Positions 55,667 to 64,000 of a stretch of 64,000 bases of DNA are shown piece by piece. Location: the NCBI RefSeq assembly GCF_014108865.1, contig NZ_CP053928.1:1550001-1614000 (forward strand), given 5' to 3'. Both the position numbers and the translations under genes were made by a program. Under the pieces are notes generated by a model. It searched no databases and was not told the origin of the DNA. It saw only the letters and a program-made list of their open reading frames with translations. This DNA comes from Nocardioides sp. WS12. Lineage in GTDB: Bacteria > Actinomycetota > Actinomycetes > Propionibacteriales > Nocardioidaceae. Each line of letters opens with the position of its first letter. The first letter of the stretch is position 1.

Positions 55667-57028
55667 TCAGACGACCTGGTCGTCAGGCCGCGTGCTGGTG
55701 AAAGCGCTGATCGGGGAGTAGGACCGTACGGGGTAGTGCACGCCCTTGCAGTGCACCTCGCCTCGGGGTTCACACGGCGCGTGGTCCCTCACCAGGTACC
55801 AACTGGCCTCGCTGATCAGGATCTGGCCCGGGTCGCAGGCGGCTTGAAGCCGCGCCGCGATGTTGGTGTGCATTCCGATCGCGGTGTAGGTCATCCGCCC
55901 GGCGGAACCAAAGCTGCCGACGCTGAGCATGCCGGTGTCGATGCCGATGCGGGTCTGCATCGGTTCGGCGATGCCGAGCCCCTGCCAGTGGCGGTTCAGG
56001 GAATCGAGTCGTGTGTGCATCGCGTGCGCGGCTCGGACTGCGCTCGCCACCTGCTGGTCGACGTCCATCTCGTCTGGAGCGCCGAAGAGCGCCATCAGGC
56101 CGTCGCCGGCGAACTCGTTCACTATTCCGCCGTGCTCATCGATCAACTGACTCATTGCTGTCATGTAGTCGTTGATCACCTGGGTGAGATCCTCGGGCTC
56201 GACGCGGTCTGCCAGAGCGGTGAACCCGACGAGGTCGGCGAACAGGACGGTGAGCCGCCTGCGCACCGGTACGTCGATCTCAGCAGTCTCACCACGGGCA
56301 ACGTGCTCGAAAACAGGACGGGGAACGTAGCGGCGGATCGTCTCGCGGGTGCTGCGCAGCTCTTGCTGCTGAGCGGCGATGATCTGGTCCTTCGAGAACG
56401 TCCGTCGATCGACGATCTCGGTGACGATGCAGACCAGGAGGCAGCCCAGGAAGGCGATCCATTGGGCTGCAGCGAAGGAGCTCGCCTCGACGGCGTTGAG
56501 CTCCCCGTCGTTGTAGGCCTCGAGCAGCTGGTAGGAACCGAAGGCGACGTAGGGAGTGATCGCGACCGTCGCGGCGCCGGGCGGATTGCGGAAGACGGCG
56601 AACCCGAAGAACATCACCACGATGAGGCCAGCGGTCATGACCCCGGCCCGCGACTGGCTCGCCTCGTCGGCCAGGGTGACCTCGGACAGCAACCAGACGA
56701 TGAGGAAGCCAGCCAGGCAGTTCGCTGCCGCCGAGAGGGGCGTCACCATTCTCTGCAGGGCCGGGTGGAAGGTCAGGCCGGTCAGCACGACCAGGAGCAC
56801 GATCCAGCCGACGACCCAGAAGGCAGCCTGGTCGGCCGCATCGGGATCGAGCACGACGACAGCCACCAGCAGCAGGACCCAGCTCGGCGTGGACCCGATG
56901 TAGCCGATGCGGGCGAAAGGCGTGGTGTAGCTGACTCGCCAGCGCTGGTAGTCCCGCTCGGTCTCGCGCTGCGCGAAACGTAGACCGAACAGGCGTGTCG
57001 AACGCGGTGTGTGCTGAGGCCAGATCAT
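55667..57028 (-). CDS. membrane-bound class III nucleotide cyclase, atypical substrate residue
   Basis: 453 residues, AGGAGT site. Six membrane helices (about 45-215), a short coiled linker (about 222-240) and a cyclase domain. Metal Asp265 (FADLVGF) and Asp309 (AGD) and the NxxxR pair (NIAAR) are present. The position that is Lys in adenylate cyclases is Glu305 (NEFAGD), and the usual GDxVN is GMHTN. Glu at this place is the guanylate-cyclase residue, so GTP use or altered specificity is possible. Divergent from a Crp/Fnr gene. Confidence 0.88.
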   Translation of the reverse strand: MIWPQHTPRSTRLFGLRFAQRETERDYQRWRVSYTTPFARIGYIGSTPSWVLLLVAVVVLDPDAADQAAFWVVGWIVLLVVLTGLTFHPALQRMVTPLSAAANCLAGFLIVWLLSEVTLADEASQSRAGVMTAGLIVVMFFGFAVFRNPPGAATVAITPYVAFGSYQLLEAYNDGELNAVEASSFAAAQWIAFLGCLLVCIVTEIVDRRTFSKDQIIAAQQQELRSTRETIRRYVPRPVFEHVARGETAEIDVPVRRRLTVLFADLVGFTALADRVEPEDLTQVINDYMTAMSQLIDEHGGIVNEFAGDGLMALFGAPDEMDVDQQVASAVRAAHAMHTRLDSLNRHWQGLGIAEPMQTRIGIDTGMLSVGSFGSAGRMTYTAIGMHTNIAARLQAACDPGQILISEASWYLVRDHAPCEPRGEVHCKGVHYPVRSYSPISAFTSTRPDDQVV

Positions 57029-57181
57029 CGGCCACTCCTGATGCCTTCGCCTGCGTCCCTCGTCCAGTCAAGTTAGTCAAGCGACGTTTCAGTGACCTGT
57101 CGACCAGAATGGAAATATCAAGCGGATCCGATAGCGAGCAGACCGATCGCGCCAGCACGCTGGGTGTGCTACCAACATGCG

Positions 57182-57844
57182 ATGGAGTGGCCGCTGCTGG
57201 GAGCTCTCGACGAGCGCGAGTGGATCGCTGTCCTCGCCGCGGCGAAGCGGCGCTCCTTCGCCAAGGGCGACATCGTCTTCAGCGAAGGGGACCTTGCCGA
57301 TTCGGTCCAGCTCGTGGCGAGTGGGCACCTCGCCGTTCAGGTCTCGACCCCGGACGGCGACCTGGCCACCCTGAGCGTCCTCGGGCCGGGGGCCTGGTTC
57401 GGAGAGCTGTCGCTGATGCCGGGCCAGATCCCCACGCCACGGTCCGCAAACGTCTTTGCCCTCGATCCGGCAGAGACCCTGGTCCTGACCCGCTCGGCGT
57501 TCCACATCCTCTGCGAGGAGCACCCGCGTATCGAGCGGTTGGTGATTGCCCTGATGGCCGCAAGAATTCGCGAGCTCGGCACCGACCTGCTGGAGGCCCG
57601 GTACGTCGGCCTGGACCGTCGGGTCTGCGCCACCCTTGATCGGCTGGCCAACATCTACGTGGCTGATGGAACGCGTACAGAAATACCCGTGACCCAGACC
57701 CAGTTGGCGGACCTTGTCGGCTGCGTCCGACCTCGGCTCAACGAGATTCTTCAACGGCTGGTGACGGACCGCGTCGTTGAGCTCGGTCGAGGCAAGCTCA
57801 CCATCGTGGATCGCCCGCGCCTGCTCCACCGGGACGATCCCTGA
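57182..57844 (+). CDS. Crp/Fnr-family transcriptional regulator
   Basis: About 220 residues from the ATG at 57182; the start is uncertain because no clear ribosome site is seen. N-terminal cNMP-binding domain with the phosphate cassette GELSL (74-78) and R87-S-A, and a C-terminal winged HTH (about 165-195, TQTQLADLVGCVRPRLNEIL). The cassette is complete, so it probably binds cAMP or cGMP, and the cyclase encoded divergently is the obvious source. Confidence 0.88.
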   Translation: MEWPLLGALDEREWIAVLAAAKRRSFAKGDIVFSEGDLADSVQLVASGHLAVQVSTPDGDLATLSVLGPGAWFGELSLMPGQIPTPRSANVFALDPAETLVLTRSAFHILCEEHPRIERLVIALMAARIRELGTDLLEARYVGLDRRVCATLDRLANIYVADGTRTEIPVTQTQLADLVGCVRPRLNEILQRLVTDRVVELGRGKLTIVDRPRLLHRDDP

Positions 57845-57974
57845 AAGCCGCCGAATGCGGTTCCTTCTTGTGTCACCGACGGAACAGACCGCCGAGGCCG
57901 ACCGAATCATGCTGAGCACATCGCAGCCCGAGGGCTGTGGCCCGGTCCGGTTCGGAACCAAGAGGAGTCCCACG

Positions 57975-58415
57975 ATGGTGAACCGCGGAATGAGCACTGG
58001 TGGCCCGCCCCCGCGCGGGAACGTGAAGCAGGAGATGAGGGACCTCGGATCGGTGCCGAGTTTTGCGGATGCGCCAGCCGCCACCCTGAAGGCAATGGTT
58101 CAAGCTGGCTACATCTTTCGGGTTCGGCCGCGGTGGACGCTGCTCGCCGAACGGACGGCTCCGGAACGGGCCTACATCCTGCTCGACGGCCTGGCTGACG
58201 TCCGCCGCGCCGGAGACGATCTCGGACCGTGTCGCCCAGGCGACATCCTGGGAGAGATCGGCATCCTCCAGCACCGTCTCCGGTCGGCGACCGTGGTGGC
58301 CAAGGACACCGTCCGCGTGCTGCATCTCAGTCGAGAGGTGTTCGAGAAACTGAACGACGAGCATCCCTACTTCCGCGATGTCGTCGGTGAGGGGATGCTG
58401 CGCAAGTTGCGCTGA
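57975..58415 (+). CDS. stand-alone cyclic nucleotide-binding domain protein
   Basis: 146 residues from the ATG at 57975 (AGAGGAG site). Almost the whole protein is one cNMP-binding domain: GEIGILQ (93-99) and Arg103-Ser-Ala, i.e. an intact phosphate-binding cassette. There is no HTH or enzyme domain, so it acts as a sensor, buffer or partner protein. The 130-base gap before it shows nothing notable. Codirectional with the Crp/Fnr gene. Confidence 0.82.
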   Translation: MVNRGMSTGGPPPRGNVKQEMRDLGSVPSFADAPAATLKAMVQAGYIFRVRPRWTLLAERTAPERAYILLDGLADVRRAGDDLGPCRPGDILGEIGILQHRLRSATVVAKDTVRVLHLSREVFEKLNDEHPYFRDVVGEGMLRKLR

Positions 58416-59156: not shown

Positions 59157-60707
59157 GTGCCACGCAAGTCCCTGATTCTCTTCTCGGTGTGCCTTGCGAC
59201 GCTCACGATCAACATGAGCGCGATGATCGTGAACATCGCGCTGCCGACGTTGGCGGTCGAACTCGACGCCACGACGAAGGACCTGCTCTGGATCGTCGAC
59301 GGCTACAACCTGGCGTTCGCGGCCCTGGTCCTGGCCATGGGCAGCCTCTCGGACCGGTTCGGACGCCGTCCGGCCCTGATCATCGGCCTCGTGGGATTCG
59401 CTGCGAGCAACGGTGCTGCGGCGCTCGCGGACAGCAGCGGGTCGCTCATCGCGATCCGGTTCGTCATGGGCGCCTTCGCGGCTCTCATCTTCCCGACCAC
59501 CTTGTCGATCATCGCGAACACCTTCACCGAGCGGCGCGAGCGCGCCACCGCGCTGGGCGTGTGGGGAGCGGCCGTGGGGGTCGGAGTCGCGCTCGGCCCC
59601 GTGGGCGGCGGGTTCCTGGTGACCCACTTCAGCTGGCACAGCGTGTTCTGGGCGCTGGTGCCGGTCAGCCTCGCCGCAGCGGCTCTGGCCGTCGCGTTCG
59701 TGCCCGAGTCCCGCGACCCGTCCGTGCCACGGATCGACCGTCCCGGGTTCGTGATCTCGGTGGCGGCCGTCGGGAGCCTGACGTGGACGATCATCGAGGC
59801 GCCCGAGCACGGCTGGAGCAGTGGCCTGATCCTCACGGGCTTCGGAGTGGCGGCCGCGCTCGTCGGCCTGTTCGTGCTCGTCGAGCGAGCGGTCGCCGAG
59901 CCCATGATCGATGTGACCCTGTTCCTGGATCGGCGTTTCAGCGCGGCCTGCGGCGCGGTCACCATCGCCTTCTTCGCGCTCTTCGGCTTCATCTTCCTGA
60001 TCACGCAGTTCTTCCAGTTCGTGCGTGACTACTCCGCCCTCGACACGGGCCTGCGGTTCCTCCCGGTGGCCGGATCCATCGCCGTCGCGTCCCTGGTCGG
60101 CGGTCGGCTCGCTCCGCTGATCGGGACCAAGGCGGTCGTCGCCTCCGGGCTGGCCCTGCTGGGCTCCGCGTTCCTCTGGATCTCCGGTCTGACGGTCGAC
60201 GTCTCCTACGCCACGGTCGTCGTACCCCAGATGGTGATGCTGGGCCTGGGGATCGGCCTGGTCAGCACCGCGGCGACCGAGTCGATCATGCAGGTGCTGC
60301 CACCCTCGCGGGCCGGGGTCGGATCGGCCGTCAACGACGCCACGCGTGAGCTCGGTGGCACGCTCGGCGTCGCGGTCGTCGGCTCGTTGTTCGCGTCCGC
60401 CTACGCCGATGGGCTCCGACCGGCGCTCGAGGGGCGGGTGGATGCCACCCATGTCGAAAGGGCTCTCGAGTCGGTCGGCTACGCCGACGCGGTCGCAACG
60501 CGCGTGCCCGGCATCGCGAGCGCCGTCGACGCTGCGTTCCTCGATGGACTGGCGTTCGGCTGTGTCGTGGTGGGCATCCTCTGCATCGCGGGGGCAGTCG
60601 CGGCACTGGCAGCGCTGCCGGGACGGGGCTTCGTGCCGCCCGGCGGGTACGAGACGGACAAGGTCCCGGACGGGCTGGATGGTCGTAGTCTCGCGACATG
60701 GTCCTGA
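59157..60707 (+). CDS. MFS transporter, DHA2/EmrB-QacA type
   Basis: 516 residues, GTG with AAGGAG. Fourteen predicted helices, motif A LSDRFGRRPALI (about 63-74) after helix 2, and antiporter motif C in helix 5 (GVGVALGPVGGGFLV). Proton-driven export of drugs or lipophilic compounds. Controlled by the divergent TetR. The stop overlaps the next start by 10 bases. Confidence 0.92.
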   Translation: MPRKSLILFSVCLATLTINMSAMIVNIALPTLAVELDATTKDLLWIVDGYNLAFAALVLAMGSLSDRFGRRPALIIGLVGFAASNGAAALADSSGSLIAIRFVMGAFAALIFPTTLSIIANTFTERRERATALGVWGAAVGVGVALGPVGGGFLVTHFSWHSVFWALVPVSLAAAALAVAFVPESRDPSVPRIDRPGFVISVAAVGSLTWTIIEAPEHGWSSGLILTGFGVAAALVGLFVLVERAVAEPMIDVTLFLDRRFSAACGAVTIAFFALFGFIFLITQFFQFVRDYSALDTGLRFLPVAGSIAVASLVGGRLAPLIGTKAVVASGLALLGSAFLWISGLTVDVSYATVVVPQMVMLGLGIGLVSTAATESIMQVLPPSRAGVGSAVNDATRELGGTLGVAVVGSLFASAYADGLRPALEGRVDATHVERALESVGYADAVATRVPGIASAVDAAFLDGLAFGCVVVGILCIAGAVAALAALPGRGFVPPGGYETDKVPDGLDGRSLATWS

Positions 60708-61951
60708 ATACGGACGGGTCGGCCGGCGTTCCCGAGGCGCTGGTGTCTGAGCTGCGCCGTACCGCCACGGAGCTGCTGGGGAACGTGTCGACGCACGCCG
60801 ACGAGATGCTTGCGTACATCGTCGAACGGATCCCGGAGGCCAGTGCGGACGACGACCTCCGTGGTCTGACCCTCGGGTCGTGCTCATCGAACCTCGAGGC
60901 GGCGCTGTCGATGGTTCGCCATGGCATCGACGTGAGCGCCGCGACCGCGCCGGTCACCGCCCTCGAGCATGCGCGCGCGATGGCGGCCCGTGGCTACAGC
61001 GTCGATGTGATGCTGCGCTTCTACCGCGTCGGGCACAGCTATTTCAGCGAGCGCATCCTGGCGGCGATCTCCGACCTGGTGGTCGATCGGACCCTCGCCC
61101 TCGCGGTGGTCGCCGACCTGCAGCGCTACGCCTTCGCCTACACCGACCGCATCGCCAGCGAGGTCGCTGCCGAGTACGTCGCCGAGCTCGACCGCATGCA
61201 GAACCGCGCCCGCGCGGCCCGGACCGATGCGGTCCGCGCCCTGATCGCTGGCGACCAGCTCGACCTCGGGCACGCCGAACGCGCCTTGTCGCACCGGCTC
61301 ACCGGATGGCAGACCGCCTTCGTCTGCCGCGCCGAGCATGACGACTCCGACCTGGCGCGCGTGGGGGCGTTGGTCGGCGCCCACCTGGGTTCGACCCATC
61401 CGCTCCTCGTGCCGGACGGGGTCCGGGCGTTGTGGGGCTGGGTCTCCACGACGCACGCTCCCGCGGTGGCCGCGGCGGACCTCGTGCCCCTGGCCGACCA
61501 GGTCCCCGGGAAGGTCCGGATCTCCATCGGTACGCCGGCGCAGGGTCCAGGCGGCTTTCGTGACTCCCACGCCCAGGCCCAGCGGGGCGCCCGCATCGTC
61601 GAGCTCTCGGGCCGCGGAGATCCGGTGACGTCGTACGCCGACGTCGCACTCGTCGACGCGATGAGCGGGGACCTCGACATCGCCCGTGACTTCGTCGCGA
61701 ACGAACTGCGCGCACTGGCCGCCGTGGGGCCGCGCGAGGACGAGGAGCGGCGGGCCCTGCTGGCCGTGCTCGACGCACAAGGAGGGCTGGCGGCCGCCGC
61801 GGAGACGCTGGGGATTCACCGCAACACCGTGCTGCAACGCATGCGTCGGGCCGAGGAGCGTCGAGGGCGCCCTGCGACGGAGAGGGTCGCCGAACTTCAC
61901 GCCGCGCTACGGCTCGTTCACGTGCTCGGTCGGGTCGTACTCCCTCAGTAA
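60698..61951 (+). CDS. PucR/CdaR-family transcriptional regulator
   Basis: 417 residues. N-terminal helical sensor (about 1-170), a GGDEF-like degenerate PucR middle domain (about 180-330) and the C-terminal PucR HTH (about 355-400, LAAAAETLGIHRNTVLQRM). It overlaps the MFS gene by 10 bases and lies 101 bases before the desaturase fusion, so it could control either. Confidence 0.88.
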   Translation: MVLNTDGSAGVPEALVSELRRTATELLGNVSTHADEMLAYIVERIPEASADDDLRGLTLGSCSSNLEAALSMVRHGIDVSAATAPVTALEHARAMAARGYSVDVMLRFYRVGHSYFSERILAAISDLVVDRTLALAVVADLQRYAFAYTDRIASEVAAEYVAELDRMQNRARAARTDAVRALIAGDQLDLGHAERALSHRLTGWQTAFVCRAEHDDSDLARVGALVGAHLGSTHPLLVPDGVRALWGWVSTTHAPAVAAADLVPLADQVPGKVRISIGTPAQGPGGFRDSHAQAQRGARIVELSGRGDPVTSYADVALVDAMSGDLDIARDFVANELRALAAVGPREDEERRALLAVLDAQGGLAAAAETLGIHRNTVLQRMRRAEERRGRPATERVAELHAALRLVHVLGRVVLPQ

Positions 61952-61978: not shown

Positions 61979-61999
61979 CGATGTGCTGCGCGCACATCG
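61979..61999. promoter_or_regulatory. inverted repeat CGATGTGC-n5-GCACATCG before the desaturase gene
   Basis: Perfect 8-base arms centred about 64 bases upstream of the start at 62053 and 28 bases after the PucR stop. No T-run follows, so an operator is more likely than a terminator. Confidence 0.5.
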
Positions 62000-62052: not shown

Positions 62053-64000
62053 ATGTCAGCAACGACCGCGCAACCCGCACCCGCAGCGACTCGTCATGCG
62101 CTTCCCGACCCGGGCGAGCGGGTCCCGACGATCTCGTGGCCCGTGGTCGGCATCTTCTTCGGCGCCATCGCGACCTTCGTGTTCTCCACGTGGGCGGCGG
62201 TGACCGACACGCTGACGGCGCTGCTGACGGTGCCGCTCAGCGCAGCCGCGATCTTCGTGCTGTTCACGGTGCTGCACGACGCGGCGCACTACTCGGTGAG
62301 CACACATCGCTGGGTGAACGTGGCCTTCGGTCGGGTCGCGATGCTGTTCGTCTCGCCGCTGATCTCGTTCAAGTCGTTCGCGTTCATCCACATCGAGCAC
62401 CACCGCAACACCAATGACGGCGAGAACGACCCGGACCACTTCGTCAGCGGCGCTCCCGTGTGGCAGCTTCCGTTCCGCTTCCCGCTGATGGATTTCCCGT
62501 ACCTGGGATTCCTGGTGCGCAACGTGCGGCGCCGTCCGCTTGCCGAGGTTCTGGAGACCGCGTTCCTGATGGCGACCACGGTCGCGGTGATCGTCGCTTG
62601 CGCGCTCACTGGCCACCTGTGGATGTTTGCGGTGCTGTATCTGATCCCCGAGCGAATCGCCATGTTCGTCCTGGCCTGGTGGTTCGACTGGTTGCCGCAC
62701 CACGACCTCGAGGACACCCAGCAGGAGAACCGTTACCGCGCCACCCGCAACCGCGTGGGCTCCGAATGGGTTCTCACGCCGCTGCTCCTCTCGCAGAACT
62801 ATCACCTCGTCCATCACCTGCACCCGTCGATCCCGTTCCACCGGTACGTCGCGACCTGGCGGCGCAATGAAGAGGCCTACCTGGAGCGGGATGCCGCGAT
62901 CGGCACCGTCTTCGGCCAGCAGCTCGACGCCGACGAGTACCGCGACTGGAAGCGACTGAACGGCAAGCTGGCCCGACTCCTGCCCGTGCGGGTGCCGAAG
63001 CGATCTTCTGCCCACGCCGCGATGTTCCACCCGGTCCCGGTCGCCAGCGTTGACCGGTTGACCGATGACAGCGTGCTGATCCGTTTCGACGTTCCCGACG
63101 ACCTGTGTGAGGAGTTCGCTTTCGAGGCAGGTCAGCACGTCACCGTCCGCACCGACCTCGGCGGCCAGGGCGTACGGCGGAACTACTCCATCTGCTCGTC
63201 GGCCATCTCCGACCCCCTCGCCATCGCGGTCAAGCACATCCCCGGCGGTGCCTTCTCGACCTTTGCCATGGAGCAGCTCCGTGCTGGCGACACCCTCGAG
63301 TTGATGACACCCACCGGGTCGTTCGGCACGCCGCTCAGCCCGCTGGCCACGAAGAACTACGTGGCGGTGGTTGCCGGGAGCGGCATCACCCCCGCACTGT
63401 CGATCCTGCAGACGACCCTTGCCGTCGAGACCGAGAGCCGCTTCACCCTCGTCTACGGCAACCGGGACGCCGACAGCACCATGTTCCGCGAGGAGCTCGA
63501 GGTCATCGAAGCCCGCTACGCCGACCGGCTCGAGATCATCCACGTCCGCTCTCGCGACCCGCATCACCCCGAGCACCTCCGCGGTCGCATCGATCGCCCG
63601 AAGCTCGAGCAGCTGCTCGCCTCTGACCTGGCCGCACCGGTGGACGAGTGGTTCCTGTGTGGACCGGTCGAGATGGTGACCGACCTTCGCAACCTGCTCC
63701 TCGAGCGCGGCACCAAGCCGGACCGTGTCCACGTGGAGCTCTTCCATGGCTTCCAGAAGCCCAGGGTTGCCGACGGCTTCGCCCCGGCGAAGGTCACGGT
63801 CAGCCTGCGTGCCCAGCAGCACGAGGTCTCACTCGCCGCGGGCGACACCGTCCTGGAATCAGCGCTGAAGGCTGGCCTCGAGGCGCCGTACGCCTGCCTC
63901 GGTGGGGCGTGCGGCACCTGCAAGGCGAAGGTGCTCCTGGGCTCGGTCGCGATGGAACAGAACTTCGCGCTCTCGCCGGCCGTCGTGGAAGCCGGCTACG
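62053..64000 (+). CDS. fatty acid desaturase/hydroxylase fused to FNR-type reductase and [2Fe-2S] ferredoxin, 3' end outside window
   Basis: Open from the ATG at 62053 to the window end (at least 649 residues). Three modules. (1) About 25-300: membrane desaturase/hydroxylase with His boxes HDAAH (75-79), HIEHH (113-117) and HLVHH (251-255), which bind the di-iron centre. (2) About 330-565: ferredoxin-NADP reductase module, with RRNYSICSS for flavin and GSGITPALSIL plus LCGPVEMV for the nicotinamide. (3) About 575 onward: plant-type ferredoxin with C615, C620 and C623 (CLGGACGTC), the last Cys beyond the visible end or just before it. A self-sufficient electron chain for O2-dependent lipid desaturation or hydroxylation. 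In mycobacteria DesA3 and its Rv3230c reductase are separate proteins. No ribosome site seen. Confidence 0.92.
   Translation, partial: MSATTAQPAPAATRHALPDPGERVPTISWPVVGIFFGAIATFVFSTWAAVTDTLTALLTVPLSAAAIFVLFTVLHDAAHYSVSTHRWVNVAFGRVAMLFVSPLISFKSFAFIHIEHHRNTNDGENDPDHFVSGAPVWQLPFRFPLMDFPYLGFLVRNVRRRPLAEVLETAFLMATTVAVIVACALTGHLWMFAVLYLIPERIAMFVLAWWFDWLPHHDLEDTQQENRYRATRNRVGSEWVLTPLLLSQNYHLVHHLHPSIPFHRYVATWRRNEEAYLERDAAIGTVFGQQLDADEYRDWKRLNGKLARLLPVRVPKRSSAHAAMFHPVPVASVDRLTDDSVLIRFDVPDDLCEEFAFEAGQHVTVRTDLGGQGVRRNYSICSSAISDPLAIAVKHIPGGAFSTFAMEQLRAGDTLELMTPTGSFGTPLSPLATKNYVAVVAGSGITPALSILQTTLAVETESRFTLVYGNRDADSTMFREELEVIEARYADRLEIIHVRSRDPHHPEHLRGRIDRPKLEQLLASDLAAPVDEWFLCGPVEMVTDLRNLLLERGTKPDRVHVELFHGFQKPRVADGFAPAKVTVSLRAQQHEVSLAAGDTVLESALKAGLEAPYACLGGACGTCKAKVLLGSVAMEQNFALSPAVVEAGY

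What the first reader, a model, noticed from the sequence alone, without database searches (positions are those of the whole stretch)
62053..64000. Desaturase-reductase-ferredoxin three-module fusion
A three-His-box membrane enzyme is fused to its whole NAD(P)H electron chain in one polypeptide. Related mycobacterial systems use separate proteins. A self-sufficient lipid desaturase or hydroxylase is of mechanistic and practical interest.
Basis: seen in the sequence. Interest (0 to 1): 0.6.

Follow-up and report, generated by a model that had tools for sequence, protein, structure and literature searches.

The report
FdxB-type all-in-one membrane oxidase
A Nocardioides-like bacterium carries one gene that joins an oxygen-activating membrane enzyme to its own reductase and ferredoxin; this layout is already described for a tuberculosis protein of unknown function, but here it comes with its own regulator gene and a likely switch site, which makes its job testable.

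Summary
The fusion is real. The gene runs 62053-64059 (59 bases past the window; 668 aa, one frame): membrane di-iron domain (fatty-acid-desaturase superfamily), PaaE-like flavin reductase, plant-type [2Fe-2S] ferredoxin. It is no artefact: 79 of the 80 best relatives (of 275 found) have the parts in one frame. The architecture is not new: M. tuberculosis FdxB (Rv3554) is described with the same parts in the same order, function unknown; so the statement that mycobacteria use separate proteins is wrong for this family. New here: (1) three clades, two in this genome; (2) in the window's clade a PucR-type regulator gene lies nearby in 52 of 53 loci, and a perfect TGTGC-N5-GCACA palindrome precedes the enzyme gene in 52 of 53; its 17-base form occurs once in the own genome; (3) about half of 27 mycobacterial-clade loci lie beside steroid-ring (KstR2-type) genes, and 2 of 148 mycobacterium-like genomes have an unfused homologue beside such genes. 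A steroid role for the window's clade is only suggestive: strong raw co-occurrence, not significant in a low-powered tree-based test. Best reading: an inducible, self-sufficient membrane hydroxylase or desaturase with an unknown hydrophobic substrate.

The parts
62053..64000 (+). Fusion gene, 668 aa; continues to 64059 in the genome (last 59 bases, with the fourth ferredoxin cysteine, outside the window)
62221..62904 (+). Membrane di-iron (FA_desaturase, PF00487) domain, residues 57-284
   Evidence: model of this part aligns with FtAlkB and weakly with SCD1
62275..62289 (+). His box 1, H75xxxH79
   Evidence: invariant
62389..62403 (+). His box 2, H113xxHH117
   Evidence: invariant
62698..62703 (+). 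Further invariant His pair H216-H217 (possible iron ligands, inferred)
62803..62817 (+). His box 3, H251xxHH255
   Evidence: invariant
63034..63324 (+). FAD-binding domain (FAD_binding_6), residues 328-424
   Evidence: PaaE model 325-667
63370..63690 (+). NAD(P)H-binding domain (NAD_binding_1), residues 440-546
63814..64000 (+). Plant-type [2Fe-2S] ferredoxin domain (Fer2), residues 588-658; C615, C620, C623 inside the window, C653 outside
61981..61997 (.). Palindrome ATGTGC-TGCGC-GCACAT, likely operator (inferred); only exact copy of the 17-base pattern in the window and in the own genome
62041..62046 (+). Conserved -10-like hexamer (TAGATT here), ending 6 bases before the ATG: likely leaderless start (inferred)
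   Evidence: by eye from the alignment
60698..61951 (+). PucR/CdaR-type regulator (GGDEF_2 + HTH_30), gene immediately upstream
   Evidence: regulator cluster present in 52 of 53 clade-A loci; 49 matches within 400 bp of the enzyme frame, 47 of these upstream on the same strand
59157..60707 (+). DHA2-type MFS transporter, overlaps the regulator start by 10 bases; not a constant neighbour
   Evidence: its cluster is in 9 of 53 clade-A loci

Best explanation
The gene encodes a self-sufficient membrane di-iron oxidase of the FdxB type. Electrons would pass from NAD(P)H to FAD in the middle domain, to the C-terminal [2Fe-2S] cluster, and to the di-iron centre held by the His boxes, which activates O2 to oxidise a hydrophobic substrate in or near the membrane. 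Hydroxylation is judged more likely than desaturation. The gene is probably switched by the PucR-type regulator encoded just upstream, which would bind the palindrome at 61981-61997, about 64 bp before the ATG, and activate transcription when the substrate or a relative of it is present. Shown: domains, conserved ligand residues, the conserved regulator gene and palindrome, the distribution. Inferred: electron route, who binds the palindrome, activation, reaction type. Unknown: substrate; a steroid- or sterol-derived compound is the leading candidate, from the mycobacterial relatives.
For: Domains; invariant ligands; one-frame fusion in 79 of 80 relatives; reductase half aligns with the self-sufficient P450 structures 6kbh (Z 25.9) and 6laa (Z 25.1); the desaturase half aligns with FtAlkB 8f6t (Z 11.5, 231 aligned, rmsd 4.5). 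Regulator present in 52 of 53 clade-A loci; perfect palindrome in 52 of 53 and one mismatch in the other, none perfect in 1060 base-shuffled regions, at best 2 mismatches in the 28 loci L117-L144; exact 17-mer once in the own genome. Steroid lead: among 27 mycobacterial-clade loci an ipdC-like gene is in 15, the ipdA/echA20 cluster in 14, an ipdB-like gene in 13, and in L124 the gene order fits Rv3550-Rv3556c as given in passages of PMC6429209 and PMC5380842.
Against: No activity is shown for any member in what I saw. The whole-protein model is moderate (mean pLDDT 77.5, pTM 0.55); in both models the stretch around the third His box has low confidence (blocks of 37-55). For helical bundles the tool warns that Z under about 13 may mean only a common arrangement, and SCD1 scored only 6.4. 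The four tested mycobacterial neighbours (ipdA/echA20, ipdB, ipdC, Rv3555c-like) are in none of the 53 clade-A loci; a thiolase-type cluster is in 2. Fusion/IpdA co-occurrence (23 of 27 carriers, 57 of 364 others) was not significant on an rpoB tree (median p 0.625; clade A or B alone 1; reverse 0.25; few informative pairs). FdxB is tabulated as non-essential, once as partly required (PMC6469627). L107 has the palindrome but no regulator gene in the fetched DNA. NADH or NADPH preference was not resolved.
Confidence: 0.65

Rival explanations
1. A lipid or acyl-CoA desaturase in the strict sense (puts a C=C bond into membrane lipid).
For: PF00487 with three-box spacing; SCD1 is among the structural matches, though weak (Z 6.4).
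Against: Three other FA_desaturase genes beside reductase-like genes exist in this genome. The best curated models of the domain are hydroxylases (CrtR 128 bits, GntB 67 bits, both far below cut-off); a desaturase model (DesA) appears only weakly and only for relatives (18.5 bits for the paralogue; 19.9 for L124). A gene with its own regulator fits a catabolic or detoxifying role better than a housekeeping lipid role (inference).
Confidence: 0.2
2. A steroid or sterol-ring hydroxylase/desaturase in all three clades, acting beside the KstR2-type C/D-ring pathway.
For: About half of 27 mycobacterial-clade loci lie in that type of locus. In 2 of 148 genomes of a mycobacterium-like genus the match is an unfused homologue; in L166 it lies beside SDR, SDR, enoyl-CoA hydratase and CoA-transferase genes and is 52% identical to the window's desaturase half; in L167 SDR and enoyl-CoA hydratase genes were confirmed by Pfam. 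Raw co-occurrence with IpdA in the own order: 23 of 27 carriers, 57 of 364 others.
Against: Tree-based test not significant; none of the four tested neighbours near the clade-A loci; the pathway paper's main text has no hit for Rv3554, fdxB or desaturase (term search of PMC5380842).
Confidence: 0.3
3. A detoxification or stress enzyme for a xenobiotic or antibiotic, with the neighbouring DHA2 efflux pump as partner.
For: A drug-efflux-type MFS gene overlaps the regulator gene in the window. In M. tuberculosis, FdxB is reported in the cluster most upregulated by five drugs (PMC6469627, passage).
Against: The transporter cluster is in only 9 of 53 clade-A loci; the FdxB expression data concern another clade.
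Confidence: 0.15
4. Assembly or frameshift artefact joining separate genes.
For: One relative (L106) has the parts in different frames.
Against: 79 of 80 relatives fused in one frame; a fused paralogue on the same single contig.
Confidence: 0.01

Closest known systems
FdxB (Rv3554) of Mycobacterium tuberculosis
   Same: Same three parts in the same order: N-terminal fatty acid desaturase domain, ferredoxin reductase, C-terminal 2Fe-2S ferredoxin; function unknown (PMC9868604, passage). About half of the named mycobacterial relatives have the matching neighbourhood.
   Different: The window gene belongs to a separate clade, 58% identical to its match L062 in the mycobacterial clade, with a PucR-type regulator and palindrome and without the tested steroid-locus neighbours. 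The Rv3554 sequence itself was not fetched.
Ferredoxin-reductase-AlkB fusion (ferr_ferrR_AlkB)
   Same: Membrane di-iron hydroxylase with its whole electron chain in one polypeptide; reported active (PMC8918992, passages).
   Different: Electron partners N-terminal, and an AlkB-type hydroxylase; the window protein has NYHLVHHLHPS, not the LQRHSDHH motif found in two other proteins of this genome (that this is the AlkB motif is recalled).
Self-sufficient P450s of the CYP116B type
   Same: Catalytic domain, then flavin reductase, then [2Fe-2S] ferredoxin (order recalled); reductase/ferredoxin half aligns with 6laa, Z 25.1.
   Different: Haem catalytic domain instead of a membrane di-iron domain.
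Two-gene desaturase plus reductase systems (DesA3/Rv3230c type, recalled)
   Same: Same superfamily and similar reductase/ferredoxin proteins.
   Different: Separate genes; three desaturase genes beside reductase-like genes lie elsewhere in this genome.
PaaE, reductase of phenylacetyl-CoA epoxidase
   Same: The reductase plus ferredoxin half is closest to PaaE (TIGR02160, 387.9 bits).
   Different: Below the PaaE cut-off (420.8) and fused; on the tree the 17 stand-alone PaaE-like proteins form one side of a branch (support 99).

Membership tests
FdxB-type desaturase-reductase-ferredoxin fusion | Three domains in this order in one polypeptide | tested here: met
FdxB-type desaturase-reductase-ferredoxin fusion | Complete His boxes and [2Fe-2S] cysteines | tested here: met
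FdxB-type desaturase-reductase-ferredoxin fusion | Place in the KstR2-type steroid-ring locus (feature of FdxB and about half of the mycobacterial clade, not of the architecture) | tested here: not met
   four tested neighbours in none of 53 clade-A loci, own included; the gene is filed by architecture, not as the FdxB orthologue
FdxB-type desaturase-reductase-ferredoxin fusion | Direct sequence match to Rv3554 | not tested
   sequence not fetched; rests on the published domain order and on synteny of named mycobacterial relatives
AlkB alkane monooxygenase fusions | AlkB-type third His motif and Fd-FNR-AlkB order | tested here: not met
   published order from PMC8918992
Cytochrome b5-fused desaturases | b5 domain as electron donor | tested here: not met
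   Pfam lists only PF00487, FNR and Fer2 domains at E <= 0.001
CYP116B self-sufficient P450 | Haem P450 catalytic domain | tested here: not met
   N-terminal domain is PF00487
CrtR carotenoid hydroxylase | Score above the NF045688 cut-off (475) | tested here: not met
   128 bits
PaaE | Score above the TIGR02160 cut-off as a stand-alone subunit | tested here: not met
   387.9 against 420.8, and fused
Membrane di-iron fold (AlkB/SCD1-like) | Predicted fold matches solved members | tested here: inconclusive
   Z 11.5 to FtAlkB and 6.4 to SCD1, with low confidence around the third His box
Self-sufficient enzyme | Turnover with NAD(P)H alone | not testable with these tools
   needs a bench assay

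The most novel reading that the evidence does not exclude
The window's clade is a transferable two-gene induction package: a PucR-type sensor, one dedicated TGTGC-N5-GCACA operator and a one-chain membrane di-iron oxygenase, the non-haem membrane counterpart of CYP116B enzymes, spread among several actinobacterial families and attacking steroid- or sterol-derived rings. The mycobacterial FdxB clade would then be the same catalyst taken under steroid-pathway control.
Probability: 0.25. Interest if true: 0.65.

Novelty: new member of a known kind. Interest (0 to 1): 0.42.

Why it matters
A described but unexplained M. tuberculosis protein (FdxB) turns out to have a family in environmental actinomycetes, where in one clade nearly every gene comes with its own regulator gene and a conserved likely operator. 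That gives a way, outside the pathogen, to find the inducer and hence the substrate, and a one-polypeptide membrane oxygenase for biocatalysis. [quoted passage not shown]

Tried and rejected
Artefact or frameshift: rejected. Plasmid or virus origin: of 1465 plasmid records with a match none covers 80% of the protein; no viral contig matched the six exact-peptide patterns, which find close relatives only. Desaturase profile against sequences of solved structures: one hit, E 0.9, a ribosomal protein. Neighbourhood of the paralogue's clade B: no cluster other than the fusion in more than 4 of 11 loci; a distant PucR-type homologue (27-32%) is in 4 of these 11, not beside the own paralogue. Steroid link by co-occurrence: strong raw, not significant on the tree (90 genomes, namely 26 carriers and 64 of the 108 listed f1 non-carriers with a PaaE-type hit, drawn at random; carrier G105 left out because it is outside family f1; the tool notes that under 6 differing pairs cannot reach 0.05, so power is low).

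Literature: the listings showed no functional study of this fusion and nothing on its regulator. Limits: open-licence papers only; one search listed 15 of 252; of the 11 papers with 'Rv3554' I read passages in seven and only the listing of PMC10101118, PMC3577857, PMC5037696 and PMC6395927. Passages in PMC5405230 (listed among in vivo induced exported proteins, with a TM segment), PMC10468300 (a mutant fitness locus) and PMC7771538 (a cholesterol expression table) name fdxB without a function.

Row drops and choices: for the 62-row alignment A3, 70 of 80 genome contigs proteins passed a start-motif filter (left out: L067, L070, L074, L085, L087, L091, L095, L104, L106, L108); one short row and rows over 95% alike were removed and L123 was left out by hand. 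The 53-row alignment A4 was picked by hand from these plus the window. K-mer discovery used 43 of 53 clade-A regions; the palindrome count used all 53. The palindrome was found in these loci before it was counted in them, many are close relatives, and the shuffles keep base composition only; so the count shows conservation, not independent replication. The promoter comparison shows 17 and 11 regions that I chose. Neighbour genes were called by conservation between loci and single-linkage clusters, so unconserved genes are missed. The genus sample is unnamed (g43); that it is Mycobacterium-like rests on one member's place beside M. gordonae.

Full report
WHAT IS THERE. The window is C1:1550001-1614000 of a 5.17 Mb genome in one contig. 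The nearest named relative of the gene's desaturase part is in Nocardioides sp. Root682 (93%), so the organism is Nocardioides-like (inferred). The frame at 62053 runs off the window; with downstream DNA it is complete at 62053-64059, 668 aa. Pfam finds FA_desaturase, FAD_binding_6, NAD_binding_1 and Fer2 in that order, all above cut-off. NCBIfam gives PaaE for residues 325-667 (387.9 bits, cut-off 420.8) and, for the N-terminal part, carotenoid hydroxylase CrtR as best, far below its cut-off (128 of 475). The three His boxes and four ferredoxin cysteines are invariant in 14 rows that hold the window protein and in 62 relatives.

IT IS A FAMILY, NOT AN ACCIDENT. A scan of named genomes with the desaturase half alone kept the best 80 of 275 relatives; 79 of 80 have His boxes and ferredoxin in one frame, and L106 has them in different frames. 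They come from Nocardioides, Amycolatopsis, Saccharopolyspora, Nocardia, Rhodococcus, Williamsia, Mycobacterium and others. In 391 genomes of the order, 27 carry a full-length match: 14 of clade A (76-90% identity, and the own gene), 18 of clade B (45-51%), 5 of them both (counted; clades assigned by identity, and by the tree for those on it). The class sample has 7 of 394 and the phylum sample 1 of 396 (own) at E 1e-105 or better, a limit that can miss divergent fusions; the samples overlap. A tree of 121 fusion reductase halves and 17 stand-alone PaaE-like proteins separates clade A (window gene), a mainly mycobacterial clade and clade B (own paralogue), with the PaaE rows on one side of a branch (support 99, SH-aLRT, quick search, midpoint root for drawing only). 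One origin of the fusion is possible but not proved.

KNOWN ARCHITECTURE. PMC9868604 (passage) says that M. [quoted passage not shown] A review and a research paper call it only a ferredoxin-reductase fusion (PMC6469627, PMC6208970; passages). [quoted passage not shown] In L124 (M. asiaticum) the order is enoyl-CoA hydratase, CoA-transferase, a 248-aa gene, a nitronate-monooxygenase/FabK-like gene, the fusion, then on the other strand a 299-aa gene and a thiolase. This fits echA20-ipdA-ipdB-ipdC-fdxB-Rv3555c-fadA6 as put together from passages of PMC6429209 and PMC5380842. The main text of the latter has no hit for Rv3554, fdxB or desaturase. Of 27 mycobacterial-clade loci, 15 have the ipdC-like, 14 the ipdA/echA20 and 13 the ipdB-like cluster; contig ends and the 8 kb flank limit these counts. 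In a 148-genome sample of a mycobacterium-like genus, 22 matched at E 1e-105: 20 with full-length fusions and 2 with an unfused homologue of about 355 aa. In L166 Pfam finds SDR, SDR, enoyl-CoA hydratase and CoA-transferase genes beside it; in L167 SDR and enoyl-CoA hydratase were confirmed. The L166 homologue is 52% identical to the window's desaturase half.

THE REGULATOR AND THE PALINDROME. Among 53 clade-A loci (own L005 and L065-L116) a PucR/CdaR-type regulator cluster is present in 52 (missing L107, also by tblastn); 49 matches lie within 400 bp of the enzyme frame, 47 of them upstream on the same strand. The other clusters counted are rarer: SDR 8 of 53, MFS 9 of 53. Before the enzyme gene, 52 of 53 loci have a perfect TGTGC-N5-GCACA and one has a single mismatch; of 1060 base-shuffled regions none was perfect and 8 had one mismatch. 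In the 28 loci L117-L144 (the mycobacterial clade plus L133) the best was 2 mismatches. In the own genome the 17-base form occurs exactly once, at 61981-61997. With one mismatch allowed there are 4 places in all, against 6 for the reversed control pattern, so the three inexact places are background. In 17 Nocardioides-type regions that I chose, the palindrome is followed by a GGGC block and a TA-x-GTT-like hexamer a few bases before the ATG, as in a leaderless start; in 11 chosen Mycobacteriales regions a leader with a GGAGG-like stretch follows (interpretation mine). L107 keeps the palindrome without a regulator gene in the fetched DNA.

STRUCTURE. The whole-protein model (mean pLDDT 77.5, pTM 0.55) was made for the relative L065. 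Its reductase half aligns best with P450 reductase GcoB (5ogx, Z 27.0), and the reductase/ferredoxin part with self-sufficient P450s 6kbh (Z 25.9) and 6laa (Z 25.1). The window's desaturase half alone (mean pLDDT 71.8) aligns with chain K of the Orf2971-FtsHi complex (8xks, Z 16.9; identity of that chain not looked up), with FtAlkB (8f6t, Z 11.5) and with SCD1 (6wf2, Z 6.4); the tool warns that for helical bundles Z under about 13 may mean only a common arrangement. The stretch around the third His box has low confidence in both models, so the metal site is not modelled reliably.

STEROID HYPOTHESIS, BOTH SIDES. In the same 391 genomes an IpdA homologue (E 1e-60 or better) is in 23 of 27 fusion carriers and 57 of 364 others; within the genus, among listed genomes with a PaaE-type hit, in 19 of 20 and 34 of 83. 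On an rpoB tree of 90 of these genomes, independent pairs agreed in 2.5 and disagreed in 1.0 of 12 on average (median p 0.625; clades A and B alone, median p 1); the reverse test gave 3.7 and 0.5 of 13 (median p 0.25). So shared ancestry can explain the raw association, and the test has little power. None of the four tested neighbours is near a clade-A locus. PMC6469627 tabulates FdxB as non-essential, in one column as partly required, and places it in the cluster most upregulated by five drugs (passages), which speaks for a stress role as much as for steroids.

VERDICT. Added here: the family map, the regulator-palindrome package and a testable route to the substrate. Mechanism: self-sufficient membrane di-iron oxidation likely, hydroxylation over desaturation at roughly two to one (judgement), steroid-type substrate about 0.3.

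Noticed in passing
L166 6423-7487 and L167 5880-6938 (genomes G1171, G1225): Unfused homologue (about 355 aa) of the desaturase half beside steroid-ring-type genes (SDR, enoyl-CoA hydratase; CoA-transferase confirmed in L166), apparently at the other end of the locus from the fused gene.
   Followed up: partly
G000:C1:2081056-2082987 (L006 8039-9991): Second full-length fusion in the same genome (clade B), 47% identical, with no PucR-type hit in the fetched DNA and no palindrome match within one mismatch nearby.
   Followed up: partly
L145 3914-6055 and L146 5378-6859 (G000:C1 near 468 kb and 796 kb): Two FA_desaturase-family proteins with LQRHSDHHANP, AlkB-like by recall, in the same genome.
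   Followed up: no
L110 and L111: A contig binned as Maritimibacter (Roseobacteraceae MAG) carries a fusion that groups tightly with Mycobacterium sp. PO1 on the tree; mis-binning or recent transfer.
   Followed up: no
NZ_LT703509.1 and seven other plasmid records (M. intracellulare, one M. avium) of 33-40 kb: Gene annotated 'fatty acid desaturase', 41% identical to the window's desaturase half.
   Followed up: no
L106 (Saccharomonospora sp. CUA-673): The only one of 80 relatives with the parts in different frames; sequencing error or real break not decided.
   Followed up: no
L107 (Mycolicibacterium sp. P9-22): Perfect palindrome kept although no PucR-type gene is found in the fetched DNA.
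   Followed up: partly
L005 8385-10517, just past the window: MMPL-family protein (711 aa) with partial MmpL3 similarity, beside a second DHA2-type MFS gene.
   Followed up: no
window 55667-58415: By eye, a class-III cyclase-like protein next to two cyclic-nucleotide-type regulator frames; not analysed.
   Followed up: no
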